The translations under genes were made by a program, and so were the position numbers. The notes beneath the pieces were generated by a model. It ran no database searches. It had not been told where the DNA came from and was given only the letters and a program-made list of their open reading frames with translations. From Brucella rhizosphaerae (GTDB lineage Bacteria; Pseudomonadota; Alphaproteobacteria; Rhizobiales; Rhizobiaceae): DNA of 64,000 nucleotides. Positions 12,337 through 53,095 of this stretch are shown here, in pieces. The stretch is taken from assembly GCF_002252475.1 (NCBI RefSeq), contig NZ_NNRK01000020.1, forward strand, positions 93,222-157,221, written 5' to 3'. How positions within the stretch are numbered: the first letter of the stretch is position 1; each line of letters starts with the position of its first letter.

Positions 12337-12939
12337 TCAAGCTGTCAGTGCCACATCGAGACGTCCACTATAAAGCGGTGATGCCAGACTGCTCAATTCT
12401 GACCCGCAGCGTCTTGCTGCCGCGAGACGAGAGAAGGAAGAACTTGACCGTCGCTGGCCCCGCGGTCTCCTCGGCACCTGATCACTGAGACAACAACCGC
12501 GAAAGATGGTTTTTGTTCCTGCCGTGCTCTGCGCACTCAAAAAACCCTGCAAAAGCGTGGAGCTTTGCACGGGGGACATCCGCAACAAACAGCGAATGCG
12601 CCTTAATGTCTGAAGCGCTTTTTTTTTGCCTTCAATGCGATATTCAAAACCGTAATCCACGCCAGGACGCAGTCTGCTGTCGCCAAAGGGCTGGCGCAGA
12701 GGACCGGCAAGCACCGATCTGAATGCGCGCACAGCACTTGACGGGCGATACTGAAACAATCGCATGGCAGCGAAAGACAGAACTGTGACGAGCAGCACTG
12801 CGAATGTCCACCACCTTTTATGGAAGAGGAACAGCGGCAGGACAAAAATGCAATGCGCGTCGAGCAGGAAAAACGAGGGAGTGCGCATGGTTTCCCGCCA
12901 CATGATGGTCCGGCCGTAAAGATCCTCGTCCCTATTCAT
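12337..12939 (-). CDS. IcmT/TraK-like protein with non-conserved tail
   Basis: The first ~95 residues resemble IcmT/TraK of type IVB (Dot/Icm, IncI-like) secretion systems: MWRETMRTPSFFLLDAH, then FHKRWWTFAVLLV, AVRAFRSVLAGPLRQP, with two membrane segments. IcmT proteins are usually about 85-95 residues; here the frame continues for another ~100 Ser/Arg/Leu-rich residues that overlap the ligD promoter and the ligD start, so a stop has probably been lost or the frame shifted near residue 100. No other type IVB genes are in the window. It overlaps the upstream gene by ATGA. Confidence 0.6.
   Translation of the reverse strand: MNRDEDLYGRTIMWRETMRTPSFFLLDAHCIFVLPLFLFHKRWWTFAVLLVTVLSFAAMRLFQYRPSSAVRAFRSVLAGPLRQPFGDSRLRPGVDYGFEYRIEGKKKALQTLRRIRCLLRMSPVQSSTLLQGFLSAQSTAGTKTIFRGCCLSDQVPRRPRGQRRSSSSFSRLAAARRCGSELSSLASPLYSGRLDVALTA
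12495..12519 (-). promoter_or_regulatory. EcfG-type promoter for ligD
   Basis: On the minus strand GGAAC, 17 bases, GTT. It points at ligD with a long leader of roughly 160 bases and lies inside the extended tail of the IcmT-like frame, which argues that this tail is not conserved coding sequence. Confidence 0.7.
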
Positions 12940-13175
12940 GGCATTGCTTCGTTCCGTGATGCTAGGCCAGACGAGGGTTGCAGCACGCTCTCAAGAAACA
13001 ACACGCCGATCAGACTTCCGGCTTCCAGTTTGACAAGGGGACCCTTGGGCACAACCCCTTCGATATCCTGCGCCATGCGTTGACCGGCCTTGCCCGCCAT
13101 CTGAAAATAGCAAACACCGGAACTGGCGCCATTGGTGCCAATCAACGTCGTCTCGACCGGCCGATCAAGGGGCAC
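12936..13175 (-). CDS. Hypothetical protein, 79 aa, coupled to the IcmT-like gene
   Basis: A 79-residue frame whose stop overlaps the start of the IcmT-like gene (ATGA). It has Gly/Val-rich sequence, with VPKGPLVKLEAGSLIGVLFL as a possible weak membrane segment. I do not recognise it. Coupling to an IcmT-like gene suggests a remnant of the same conjugation or secretion cluster. Confidence 0.4.
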   Translation of the reverse strand: MPLDRPVETTLIGTNGASSGVCYFQMAGKAGQRMAQDIEGVVPKGPLVKLEAGSLIGVLFLESVLQPSSGLASRNEAMP

Positions 13176-13530
13176 GGAGATTGATGTAATTATGACTTTT
13201 CCAGCTAATTAAATGGAAGAAAGCACTTCTTAATCCATCTCCAGAGTAGAAACATAGTGGGAGTGACCAGAAACATCCCCAATCTAAGCCAGATTGTTTT
13301 CCCGGTTTCATCCAACAGGATTTTTAAAGGACCTAAGCCACATGAAACTCCAGCCATGCAGACCTGGCGTGAAATAGCATGCTTGAAATCCGCATGATAT
13401 CAGTATCATAGATACAGCTGTGTTCGCGCATAGGTTAAAGTTACACTGCCCCCGTCACGATGTCGTTTCCATCCATCGCACCATTGTTGCTATAAGCAAC
13501 TGATTGCAAAATAACGCATCCGGATTTCAG
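13176..13530. other. Intergenic with an IS6 end remnant
   Basis: Apart from the 98-bp IS6 fragment at 13353-13450 I see no gene. The sequence between 13176 and 13352 is AT-richer than its surroundings and may be junction debris. Confidence 0.4.
13353..13450 (+). repeat. 98-bp remnant of an IS6-type right end
   Basis: This segment matches 48936-49033 over 98 bases with two differences, in the same orientation. It contains the last bases of the IS6-type element described at 48232-49033, including the terminal inverted repeat ending ACACTGCC. Only this end is present; the transposase body is missing. Confidence 0.85.
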
Positions 13531-13953
13531 ATGGTTCCTCGCTTCTTCAGACGCTACTTTGCCAGTTTCGCCGCTTGTCTATGCGGTTTGCTGCTGTTGC
13601 CGTAGATTCTGGGCGTACCGGGCAATCCAACGCTTGGGCAGGATTTTGCATGGACCTCGGGTCTTCTGGCAATGGTTGCTTATCTGGTGATGTTTCAATG
13701 TGTTAAAATGATCCAGAGCCGAGACAGATTTGGCAAGCCAAAGCTTTCCACGCGGCTTGATAGCGGCCTTCATGCAGCTTCCATAGTGCTGTCTGCAGTG
13801 CTCGGGGTCGCAGTCATCCTTCTCGTTTGGTTAAATGTTGAGGTGAGCGGAGGAAGGCAAAGCGAAAAACATCATGAGGCTCTGTTCTCTGCCAATGATT
13901 TTTTTGTCGCAACCATTGTCCGCAGAAGGCTTCAACCCACGCGTTGTCGATAA
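13531..13953 (+). pseudogene. Broken small membrane protein gene (in-frame TAG)
   Basis: From the ATG at 13531 the frame reads MVPRFFRRYFASFAACLCGL, reaches TAG at 13603-13605, then continues open with three more hydrophobic stretches (SGLLAMVAYLVMFQCVKM and IVLSAVLGVAVILLVWLNV) to 13953. The continuity of membrane-protein character across the stop suggests one ~140-residue protein inactivated by a point mutation. Family not recognised. Translation could restart at the ATG at 13672. Confidence 0.5.
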
Positions 13954-14027
13954 GGAGAACGATCAATCCATCGACGCTGGAGGTCTTGGGCTATACCCAA
14001 AATGATTATCGTTGCCAGAAGCGGCGC

Positions 14028-14052
14028 GGAACATTCTAACCGCTGGGATGTT
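14028..14052 (+). promoter_or_regulatory. EcfG-type promoter
   Basis: GGAAC, 17 bases, GTT, ending 49 bases before the start of the small secreted protein gene at 14102. Confidence 0.75.
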
Positions 14053-14101
14053 AGATGGGGAGCAAGCGCAGTCAAGGCTAGCCCAGCCTAAGGAGTGAAC
14101 C

Positions 14102-14401
14102 ATGAAACCTGCCACCATTGCTGCGGTCCTCTTCACCATGGCACTGTGTCATCTGCCGAGTGCCGTATCGGCTGAAGAATCCGGCCTTCCCAATCAATCA
14201 AGTGGACAAGAACCCGAGGTCCCTGGCAACAATTCCACTACGGGCGCTAAACCTGTTCCACCCAACAGCAAATCGGCGCCGAAATCTCCGCAGGAGCAGC
14301 AGGAAGATGCGCAACGCAAGGCAGAAAAGCTAAGGAAATGCGCGCCGGGACAGGATGCCAAAGCATGTCGTGAATATAATGTGAAACACAGCAAGAAATG
14401 A
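14102..14401 (+). CDS. Small secreted, proline/lysine-rich protein
   Basis: The ATG follows AAGGAGTGAACC, a strong ribosome binding site. The 99-residue product has a signal peptide (MKPATIAAVLFTMALCHLP, cleavage after VSA), a flexible Pro/Ser/Asn-rich middle and a charged C-terminal helix containing two cysteines (RKCAPGQDAKACREY). A periplasmic stress protein is likely from its EcfG-type promoter; I do not recognise a family. Confidence 0.7.
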   Translation: MKPATIAAVLFTMALCHLPSAVSAEESGLPNQSSGQEPEVPGNNSTTGAKPVPPNSKSAPKSPQEQQEDAQRKAEKLRKCAPGQDAKACREYNVKHSKK

Positions 14402-52009: not shown

Positions 52010-52012
52010 AAC

Positions 52013-52268
52013 ATGGCTCAGATCACACGGGACCACGACAAAATCCGCCGGTGGGGCGGAAGACCGCAACGGACGTCCGGCAGTGGTGGATACGGGTAAT
52101 GACGTCGGTATATTGCGCATCGACTTCGCGGAGAAAGACGAGAATCTGGAAGAGATCAACTGGGATGATTTCTTCGCCATCTTCGATGATCGTAATCTGG
52201 CTTTCCTCTATGAAGACGCGGGCGACAGCCGCTTCAACAAGTTTGTTGATGCGGACAAGAATGCCTAA
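52013..52268 (+). pseudogene. Small conserved protein gene with a 1-base frameshift in a G run
   Basis: From the ATG at 52013 it reads MAQITRDHDKIRRW and then leaves its frame at GGGG (52053-52056). Removing one G gives RRWAEDRNGRPAVVDTGNDV, then ILRIDFAEKDENLEEINWDD and FFAIFDDRNLAFLYED, ending 52268. Such proteins (IRRWAEARNGRP..) are known small unknowns of this group. Either the gene is newly broken, or the sequence has a homopolymer error; it follows the DUF3606 gene by three bases. Confidence 0.75.
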
Positions 52269-52299
52269 GGGAGCGTGTCGTTGGGCGAGGGCTGACGCA

Positions 52300-52587
52300 T
52301 CAGGAAGGACCGTCCGAATCCGGCAGAATGTTCAGGTTCGCGGCAATGGGCGCTTCTGCGTGGCGGTCTTGATAGCGTTTGTGGGCAAGCCGCGATGCCA
52401 GTTCAGCAATGTAGTTCAGATCTCTCAGGCCGTTCTGGTAAAGCATGATGATCGCGGACGAAAGATCGGCTGCAGCATACTCCCGGTCGCTCTCCTCAAG
52501 AATGATCGCGGCATGGGAAAAGCAGTTGCGCATGAAGGTCACTTCTTCCGGCTTGTAGATACGGCTCGCTTCGTTAAAGAGCGGCAT
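52300..52587 (-). CDS. Small stress-linked protein, PLFNEASRIY family, copy 2
   Basis: The ATG at 52587 follows GAAAGGAGTATTCC. The 95-residue product MPLFNEASRIYKPEEVTFMR is helical, and is a paralogue of the gene at 29028-29303 (same first 20 residues in style). No function known. Four residues of the paralogue, NGLRDL / SGLRDS, recur in the middle. Confidence 0.78.
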   Translation of the reverse strand: MPLFNEASRIYKPEEVTFMRNCFSHAAIILEESDREYAAADLSSAIIMLYQNGLRDLNYIAELASRLAHKRYQDRHAEAPIAANLNILPDSDGPS

Positions 52588-52677
52588 GGAATACTCCTTT
52601 CGAAAACTCAGCAATACGCTTCCTGATTATTTAAGATAGGCACGTTTGATCACTTCATGTTTCGATAATGCTCTGGA

Positions 52678-52878
52678 TCACGGCAGGCGACCGCTGCCGT
52701 CTTCGGGATGACGTTCGAGATTCTGGCGGTTGAGGCAGTCGAGGACCCGCTGCGCCTCGTCCTCGTTCAATGCGATCTGCAACCGCCCTTCGAACGTGAC
52801 CGGATTGCCCTTGAAGGCATCGATCACGGACCAGGTGCCGTCGCCTCTTCTCTGAAGTTTGTAACCATTTTCTATCAT
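52678..52878 (-). CDS. Hypothetical protein, 66 aa
   Basis: The ATG at 52878 follows AAGGGGAGAAAGTC. Reads MIENGYKLQRRGDGTWSVID, AFKGNPVTFEGRLQIALNED, then EAQRVLDCLNRQN. A small alpha/beta protein, no family recognised. An upstream EcfG-type motif at 53036-53060 may drive it. Confidence 0.6.
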   Translation of the reverse strand: MIENGYKLQRRGDGTWSVIDAFKGNPVTFEGRLQIALNEDEAQRVLDCLNRQNLERHPEDGSGRLP

Positions 52879-52966
52879 GACTTTCTCCCCTTCTTCGCGG
52901 TCCAGATTCCTGCTGTGAAATCGCCTGGCCATTTGAATTGATGGAGTGAGTCTTCATATGCAAATT

Positions 52967-53095
52967 CGATAGAGCCTTCATCAATGAATTTTCCGCATGC
53001 GCGGTGCCCATTGCTTCCGGCTTGCCCACGTCGTGAACACCGCGATGGACCAGCTGTTCCACCATCTGGTCACGAGTTTTCTCAAAATTTCTCAT
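52967..53095 (-). pseudogene. Fragment resembling protein-L-isoaspartate methyltransferase start
   Basis: From the ATG at 53095 the frame reads MRNFEKTRDQMVEQLVHRGV then HDVGKPEAMGTAHAENSL. This resembles the N-terminus of protein-L-isoaspartate O-methyltransferases (MVEExIxxRGIxDxxVLEAMxxVPRE), but it degenerates after ~40 residues and the SAM-binding domain is missing. I read it as a remnant; a short chance similarity is the alternative. Confidence 0.5.
53036..53060 (-). promoter_or_regulatory. EcfG-type motif inside the methyltransferase-like fragment
   Basis: Minus-strand GGAAC, 17 bases, GTT, about 160 bases upstream of the ATG at 52878. It lies within coding-like sequence, so it could be one of the few chance matches expected. 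Confidence 0.45.

What the first reader, a model, noticed from the sequence alone, without database searches (positions are those of the whole stretch)
12495..53060. A large clustered regulon of EcfG-type promoters, GGAAC-N17-GTT
Read directly: 23 occurrences of GGAAC, exactly 17 bases, then GTT between 12.5 and 53.1 kb, on both strands, nearly all 15-110 bases upstream of a chosen start. About two would be expected by chance in 64 kb on both strands. The promoters serve ligD, both Ku genes, topoisomerase IB, the MPG-type glycosylase, katE, alcohol dehydrogenase, a glutaredoxin-like protein, a Crp-like regulator and many small unknowns. Established knowledge: GGAAC-N16/17-cGTT is the alphaproteobacterial EcfG general-stress promoter. 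Unusual here: the base before GTT is G or A in 17 of 23, not C. Inference: this is a mobile or locally assembled general-stress regulon with possibly modified sigma specificity.
Basis: partly seen in the sequence, partly recalled or inferred. Interest (0 to 1): 0.88.

Follow-up and report, generated by a model that had tools for sequence, protein, structure and literature searches.

The report
Plasmid-borne second stress regulon
On a contig that shares its DNA-transfer genes with a known conjugative plasmid, 24 copies of one promoter-like sequence stand, all but one, in front of DNA-repair, catalase and small stress genes around two sigma-factor genes that likely switch them on together, so a second stress programme would be able to move between bacteria as one package.

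Summary
In detail: 24 (not 23) GGAAC-N17-GTT sites in the window against 1.8 expected, all in 12.5-53.1 kb, 23 of 24 ending 1-202 nt before a start in my gene list. The density is local: 3 more sites in the other ~117 kb of the contig, and no genome-wide excess over the reversed pattern. The contig shares a VirB-type transfer region with a conjugative plasmid. The same sites crowd around related sigma genes in 34 of 41 alphaproteobacterial loci scanned and around EcfG2 on Rhizobium etli p42f, for which a published motif search found nothing (PMC3892343). The base before GTT is C in 50 of 69 sites at canonical phyR loci but in 3 of 24 here and 75 of 332 at accessory loci. I think the island's sigmas read these sites, but an EcfG can also use non-C sites, so altered specificity is likely, not shown.

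The parts
12495..12519 (-). promoter-like site GGAAC-N17-GTT (G before GTT), 169 nt before ligD
14028..14052 (+). site (T), 49 nt before small protein 14102-14401
15372..15396 (-). site (G), 31 nt before DUF892 gene 14831-15340
15697..15721 (+). site (A), 78 nt before MPG glycosylase 15800-16369
17308..17332 (+). site (G), 30 nt before long-type catalase 17363-19468
20193..20217 (-). site (G), 36 nt before 19764-20156
20259..20283 (+). site (A), 106 nt before alcohol dehydrogenase 20390-21553
21791..21815 (-). site (C), no clear downstream gene
23883..23907 (-). site (A), 36 nt before PepSY-type gene 23526-23846
23966..23990 (+). site (A), 135 nt before DUF2391 gene 24126-24881
25426..25450 (+). 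site (T), 31 nt before glutaredoxin-like gene 25482-25994
26075..26099 (+). site (A), 22 nt before DUF6766 gene 26122-26955
26997..27021 (+). site (G), 29 nt before ORF 27051-27413
28356..28380 (-). site (A), 87 nt before isochorismatase-type gene 27660-28268
29437..29461 (+). site (T), 34 nt before Crp-like gene 29496-30236
32819..32843 (-). site (G), 61 nt before small repeat protein 32572-32757, with sigma gene 31996-32514 next downstream on the same strand
37185..37209 (-). site (C), 31 nt before 36890-37153, with histidine kinase 34894-36765 next downstream on the same strand
37496..37520 (+). site (G), 202 nt before Ku-1 37723-38577
44266..44290 (-). site (A), 52 nt before Ku-2 (start taken at 44213)
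44308..44332 (+). site (C), touching first possible start of topoisomerase IB 44334-45455
50110..50134 (-). site (G), 46 nt before 49794-50063
50177..50201 (+). site (A), 29 nt before DUF3175 gene 50231-50518
51160..51184 (+). site (G), 17 nt before 51202-51549
53036..53060 (-). site (T), 157 nt before 52678-52878
28486..28510 (+). near-match GGAAC-N17-CTT 24 nt before sigma g33
28535..29020 (+). ECF sigma factor g33 (EcfG-like)
   Evidence: Pfam; tree
31996..32514 (-). ECF sigma factor g39 (EcfG-like)
   Evidence: Pfam; tree
31529..31921 (-). degenerate receiver-like protein; weak matches to response regulators including SdrG
   Evidence: E 3.6e-4 to 2lpm, 0.0031 to 5ieb; no Pfam match
34894..36765 (-). 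histidine kinase with PAS and HWE_HK domains
30576..31286 (-). second Crp-like regulator
28455..28470 (.). palindrome TGTACGATATCGTACG upstream of sigma g33
29381..29396 (.). palindrome TGTCCGATAGCGTACA upstream of Crp-like gene 29496-30236
31389..31404 (.). palindrome TGTACGATAGCAGACA upstream of Crp-like gene 30576-31286
9677..12325 (-). ligD (phosphoesterase, ligase and primase-polymerase domains)

Best explanation
A 41-kb stretch of a contig with conjugation-type genes holds 24 copies of one predicted ECF-type promoter (GGAAC-N17-GTT), which are predicted to be read mainly by the two EcfG-like sigma factors encoded among them, so that the stretch would work as a self-contained accessory general stress regulon. 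Shown: the sites, their spacing, their position before genes, their confinement to this part of the contig, the sigma, kinase, receiver-like and Crp-like genes, the transfer region, and the recurrence of the same sites around related sigma genes in other bacteria. Inferred: sigma g39 (behind the site at 32819-32843, in a possible operon with a small repeat protein and the receiver-like protein) would raise its own level. Sigma g33 would be switched on from its own GGAAC-N17-CTT sequence with help of a Crp-like regulator bound at the palindrome TGTACGATATCGTACG. Both sigmas would prefer a -10 with G or A before GTT, where the chromosomal EcfG prefers C. The kinase and receiver-like protein would feed the chromosomal PhyR/NepR switch or act beside it, since no second PhyR was found. 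Output would be end-joining repair (LigD, Ku), alkylation repair, topoisomerase IB, catalase, DUF892 proteins and small stress proteins.
For: Site count, spacing and placement. Contig confinement, 24 in 41 kb against 3 in ~117 kb; of 80 sites with A or G before GTT in the 4.9-Mb genome, 17 lie in this window. Two sigma genes inside the cluster. Recurrence: 34 of 41 loci around sigma relatives have 2 or more N17 sites per 10.8-20.5 kb, control spacings averaging 0-1.2; conjugative plasmid pMT180101 has 22 on 255 kb, 19 of them within 40 kb around its sigma; R. etli p42f has 14 of 38 within 30 kb around ecfG2. Non-C -10: C in 50 of 69 at 30 canonical phyR loci, 75 of 332 distinct sites at accessory loci (p = 6e-15), 11% of 75 in the island group. 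Matched gene: Ku sites have C in 14 of 18 in genomes with one strong sigma hit, 2 of 23 distinct sites beside accessory sigmas (p = 1e-5). Sigma helix: canonical A, L, E, Q at four positions of region 2.3-2.4 in 28-30 of 30; accessory S 48, M 46, T 44, R 33 of 55. Homologs of island genes often keep a site within 250 nt: DUF892 21 of 27 loci, Ku 12 of 14 and 11 of 14, isochorismatase-type 10 of 12. Palindrome: 3 in the window (0.09 expected), all upstream of sigma or Crp genes; 13 in 63 accessory loci, 0 in 302 kb of control loci.
Against: No transcript or binding data for this genome. In S. melonis Fr1 the EcfG motif is GGAAC-N17-20-GTT, with Ku, topoisomerase IB, catalase and ADH in the table of EcfG-regulated genes; of 12 intact GGAAC...GTT sites in the passages I saw, 6 have C (my count). 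So a chromosomal EcfG may suffice. Close DUF892 orthologs in one-strong-hit genomes have C in only 2 of 10, and 12 of the 27 genomes rechecked hold a second sigma hit of 98-118 bits, so that control is not clean. Overall DUF892 contrast 15 of 24 against 8 of 24, p = 0.08. Over 151 genomes, extra sigma genes go with more sites of both kinds (R/Mb p = 0.009, C/Mb p = 1e-4; R:C ratio p = 0.13). S. meliloti RpoE5 overexpression gave one target (PMC6180224, passages). R. etli katG, EcfG2-dependent in PMC3892343, has no site upstream even with one mismatch. No exact site lies directly before either sigma gene of the window. 7 of 41 loci had 0-1 sites. Homologs of ligD (0 of 12) and of the kinase (0 of 20) lack a site. 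The palindrome pattern was defined from some of the sites counted, and one of 30 shuffled palindromes reached 11.
Confidence: 0.58

Rival explanations
1. The chromosomal EcfG (contig C26, beside phyR and nepR) transcribes the whole cluster under the PhyR-NepR switch; the island's sigma genes are minor or serve other genes, and the loss of C before GTT is drift at a weakly read base.
For: Canonical locus present. Same gene types are EcfG-regulated in S. melonis with a motif that does not demand C. Non-C sites before DUF892 orthologs where only one strong sigma hit was found. In S. meliloti RpoE2 overexpression raised 320 genes, RpoE5 one.
Against: G is enriched (51% of 75 island-group sites), not merely C lost; Ku sites change base with presence of a local accessory sigma; the sites crowd around accessory sigma genes on several replicons.
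Confidence: 0.3
2. The cluster is a collecting ground: a plasmid hot spot in which stress genes that already carried EcfG promoters elsewhere were inserted one by one, with no shared local control.
For: IS66, IS4/5-type and IS3-family transposases and an integrase around or in the stretch; pMT180101 has 96.4% identical transfer genes but a different stress cluster.
Against: Sites of the island group share more than the core (A or C after GGAAC, then A/T, G before GTT), and regulators sit among the genes.
Confidence: 0.1
3. The sites are chance or coding-sequence matches.
For: Genome-wide the pattern is no commoner than its reverse.
Against: 24 against 1.8 expected, one spacing only, 23 of 24 before starts.
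Confidence: 0.02

Closest known systems
Rhizobium etli sigma EcfG2 (RHE_PF00052, plasmid p42f) accessory general stress response
   Same: Plasmid-borne EcfG-like sigma without neighbouring phyR or nepR (PMC3892343), near ferritin-like and Crp/Fnr genes; 14 GGAAC-N17-GTT sites in 40 kb; palindrome upstream of both the sigma gene and a Crp/Fnr gene.
   Different: Island sigmas are 46-48% identical to it; here two sigmas, a kinase and end-joining genes on one contig; the published motif search for EcfG2 targets found none (section 19).
Canonical alphaproteobacterial PhyR-NepR-EcfG (ECF15) general stress response
   Same: -35 GGAAC, spacing, type of target genes, HWE kinase.
   Different: No PhyR found on the contig; C before GTT in 3 of 24 against 50 of 69 at canonical loci.
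Sphingomonas melonis Fr1 EcfG regulon
   Same: GGAAC-N17-20-GTT; Ku, topoisomerase IB, catalase, ADH and Crp-type genes in the table (passages).
   Different: In the passages I saw, no plasmid cluster of targets is described; that strain does have a plasmid-encoded GSR kinase and receiver.
Sinorhizobium meliloti RpoE5 (pSymB)
   Same: Accessory ECF15 sigma; its listed promoter GGAACCAAAGGGCCGGAAAGGCATT resembles the sequence before island sigma g33.
   Different: Single target on overexpression.

Membership tests
ECF15/EcfG sigma factors | sigma-70 regions 2 and 4, no other domain in the same protein | tested here: met
   Sigma70_r2 and Sigma70_r4_2 in both; also PhyR_sigma2 matches
ECF15/EcfG sigma factors | match to an ECF15 group model | not tested
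ECF15/EcfG sigma factors | encoded beside phyR and nepR | tested here: not met
   single PhyR, on contig C26; NepR not searched genome-wide; R. etli EcfG2 lacks these neighbours too, so the feature defines only the canonical copy
ECF15/EcfG sigma factors | target promoters GGAAC-N16-CGTT | tested here: inconclusive
   -35 and spacing met; C before GTT in 3 of 24; that the island sigmas read these sites is untested
R. etli EcfG2-type accessory sigmas | grouping with EcfG2 apart from canonical EcfG | tested here: inconclusive
   (quick tree, 77 rows, 10 of 30 canonical rows included): g39 in a 46-row group with EcfG2, SH-aLRT 83; g33 outside it, in a group with long branches; canonical rows form their own group, 99
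Conjugative plasmid | T4SS and relaxosome genes on the same contig | tested here: met
   C11:40001-55493 matches the virB-type region of CP061774.1 at 96.4%, and a mobC/parA region at 90.0%; transfer itself not testable
PhyR-NepR controlled regulon | NepR binds the island sigmas | not testable with these tools
   -

The most novel reading that the evidence does not exclude
Accessory EcfG-like sigmas form a transmissible second general stress response with its own promoter code, GGAACa-N15-(G/A)GTT, separate from the chromosomal CGTT code, and with its own input: a Crp/Fnr-like regulator acting at TGTACGATATCGTACA before the sigma gene. This is the missing motif of the non-canonical EcfG class, and it spreads as plasmid islands that pair DNA end joining with oxidative defence.
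Probability: 0.37. Interest if true: 0.78.

Novelty: new variant of a known kind. Interest (0 to 1): 0.62.

Why it matters
[quoted passage not shown] The clusters found here give a specific candidate pattern and a list of sites that can be tested at once in R. etli. If right, a whole stress regulon with its own sigma factors can travel by plasmid as a unit, rather than single resistance genes being placed under host control.

Tried and rejected
Chance or coding matches: rejected. Genome-wide natural experiment (151 genomes): sites with C rise once one EcfG hit is present (log2 R/C 1.02 with none, n = 21; 0.25 with one, n = 70; 0.10 with two or more, n = 60), but R sites do not separate from C sites with further sigmas; reported as mixed. 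'One strong sigma hit' as canonical-only: one search showed a second hit of 98-118 bits in 12 of 27 rechecked genomes, so one search is softened. A subset counted by hand (the 15 genomes without such a second hit: Ku C 5 of 8, DUF892 C 9 of 13) gives p = 0.006 against 2 of 23 distinct Ku sites and p = 0.047. In one search the Ku comparison counted two L037 sites under both Ku queries (2 of 25, p = 3.5e-6); corrected. katG as an anchor for EcfG2: no site. The accessory sigma's own promoter as C-type: 12 of 18 C with N17 and N18 together against 104 of 428 other sites (p = 0.0003), but most of the N18 ones come from closely related Neorhizobium-type loci, so not claimed. g34 as NepR: looked at by eye only, no Pfam match. 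Gene calls 12337-12939, 37528-37668 and 32584-32787(+) from my caller look spurious. NepR was not searched genome-wide. No structure was predicted.

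
Full report
Observation. The pattern GGAAC-N17-GTT occurs 24 times in the window, against a mean of 1.79 and a maximum of 6 in 100 shuffles. All sites lie in 12495-53060. Only this spacing is enriched: within 9.6-53.2 kb, N15, N16, N18 and N19 give 0, 6, 2 and 2, and 22 control spacings average 2.1. 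23 of 24 end 1-202 nt before a start on the same strand, 16 of them at 61 nt or less, against 21 of 47 control sites (p = 1.7e-5). The start list was partly curated with the sites in view, which favours the result. The base before GTT is G 9, A 8, T 4, C 3.

Local or everywhere. The window is G000:C11:93222-157221, the end of a 157-kb contig of a 4.9-Mb draft. Genome-wide the pattern has 179 matches and its reversed control 194, so there is no general excess. On C11 there are 3 sites in the other ~117 kb. Sites with A or G before GTT: 80 in the genome, 17 in the window; sites with C: 63 and 3.

What lies there. The protein at 31529-31921 has no Pfam match but weakly resembles response-regulator receivers (best E 3.6e-4, 2lpm), among them SdrG (E 0.0031; its role in the Sphingomonas stress response is recalled). 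The genome has one PhyR, beside a canonical ecfG on contig C26; the only PhyR_sigma2 matches on C11 are the two sigma genes.

The replicon. C11:40001-55493 is 96.4% identical to the VirB/T4SS region of the conjugative plasmid of Ochrobactrum sp. MT180101, and a further part matches its mobC/parA region at 90.0%. That plasmid carries a different stress cluster with three annotated Ku genes, a 3-methyladenine glycosylase, ferritin-like genes and a sigma 56% identical to g33, and 19 of its 22 sites lie within 40 kb around that sigma. C11 also holds a heat-resistance-type module (1-18 kb), arsenic genes and copper-type genes.

Other bacteria. One scan of genome contigs with an alignment of five sigmas returned 80 loci. 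I scanned the 41 whose record titles I took as alphaproteobacterial; the 39 others were left out. 34 of 41 have two or more N17 sites; 7 have 0 or 1. R. etli p42f has 14 sites in 40 kb around ecfG2, R. etli CIAT 652 pC 9, R. leguminosarum 248 only one. A quick tree of 77 sigma rows puts canonical EcfG (10 of 30 included) in one group (99), g39 with sigmas of Falsochrobactrum, Ochrobactrum, B. pituitosa and a same-genus genome (100) inside a 46-row accessory group that holds R. etli EcfG2 (83), and g33 with MT180101 and the same-genus genome (98) outside it, with long branches.

The base before GTT. At 30 canonical phyR loci: C 50, T 9, A 5, G 5 (many of these are orthologous promoters, so not independent). 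At accessory loci, with ten loci of canonical-like or distant sigmas set aside: G 123, C 75, A 70, T 64 (p = 6e-15). In the group of window, MT180101 and close relatives (7 loci): G 51%, A 25%, T 13%, C 11% of 75. In the 245 sites of the remaining accessory loci no base before GTT passes my reporting limit, so there the preference is lost rather than shifted. As a matched-gene test I took DUF892 and Ku genes from 70 family genomes with exactly one sigma hit at E <= 1e-20 (the best 30 loci each). Ku sites: C 14 of 18, against 2 of 23 distinct sites next to accessory sigmas (p = 1e-5). DUF892: 15 of 24 against 8 of 24 (p = 0.08). Against my reading, the ten closest DUF892 orthologs with a site in those genomes have C in only 2, and one search shows that 12 of 27 of these genomes rechecked have a second, weaker sigma hit. 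In 151 genomes, R:C falls from about 2:1 with no EcfG hit to about 1.2:1 with one, which ties C to the canonical sigma; further sigmas raise both kinds.

Sigma protein. In the helix of regions 2.3-2.4 (established as the -10 reading part of sigma; recalled, not from a call) canonical proteins have A, L, E and Q at four positions in 28-30 of 30, accessory ones mostly S, M, T and R (48, 46, 44 and 33 of 55). This fits a change of -10 preference; it does not show it, and many other positions differ as well.

Input signal. A palindrome TGTNCGNTANCGNACA (up to 1 mismatch) occurs three times in the window (0.09 expected), upstream of sigma g33 and of both Crp-like genes. It lies 65-88 nt before the sigma gene also in R. 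etli CFN42 (p42f ecfG2), CIAT 652, R. leguminosarum 248, L023 and the same-genus genome L149, and before a Crp/Fnr gene on p42f. There are 13 such sites in 63 accessory loci against 2 for the reversed pattern, a mean of 2.5 (maximum 11) for 30 shuffled palindromes, and 0 in 302 kb of control loci. The pattern was defined from some of these sites, so the counts are not an independent test. The sigma genes' own -35/-10 is GGAACCAA with CTT or ATT after N17 in window g33, MT180101 and L149, like the listed S. meliloti rpoE5 promoter.

Literature. PMC3892343 (outline, section 15 part 1, sections 19, 21, 22, 23 and passages): EcfG1 motif GGAAC-N16-CGTT; no motif found for EcfG2, with 1 of 19 EcfG2 units matching the EcfG1 motif; each sigma prefers its own promoter; katG is EcfG2-dependent. 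PMC8103513 (passages): non-canonical pattern yet to be determined. Passages only: PMC6180224, PMC6599016, PMC3616915, PMC4167512 (it states one shared motif for RpoE4 and PF00052, against my reading), PMC3188799, PMC3082293. A search for EcfG with conjugative plasmid and general stress response found no paper in the held library; the listed rows showed no title on such a cluster. I did not read supplements, and most subscription papers are not held.

Verdict. The cluster is real, local and on a contig with conjugation genes, and it carries its own sigma factors. The most likely working is an accessory general stress regulon read chiefly by those sigmas, possibly with help of the chromosomal EcfG. 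The altered -10 is supported by several comparisons and weakened by others.

Noticed in passing
G000:C11:1-18000 (locus L169): Heat-resistance-type module (FtsH, Clp, YfdX, antiporter), for example 97.1% identical over 69% of the 20-kb query to a Methylorubrum extorquens AM1 plasmid; 1595 plasmid records match somewhere, 1105 of them Klebsiella.
   Followed up: no
G000:C11:22260-32208 and 62557-69238 (L170, L172): Arsenic-resistance genes (88-91% identical to rhizobial plasmids) and copper-type P-ATPase/multicopper oxidase genes on the same contig.
   Followed up: no
R. etli CIAT 652 pC (CP001077.1) 320624-334465: A second dense group of GGAAC-N17-GTT sites, ten within 14 kb, far from the ecfG2-like gene at 41.8 kb.
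   Followed up: no
L016, L017, L018, L024, L158: Loci, mostly Neorhizobium-type, in which the N18 spacing is commoner than N17 near the accessory sigma.
   Followed up: partly
window 29028-29330 and 52300-52587: Two related small proteins of unknown family (shared PLFNEASRIY stretch), one convergent with sigma g33; no Pfam match, homologs in 4 of 61 accessory loci.
   Followed up: no
window 5863-7089 and 7720-9387: Integrase-type gene and IS66 transposase at the left border of the stress cluster.
   Followed up: no
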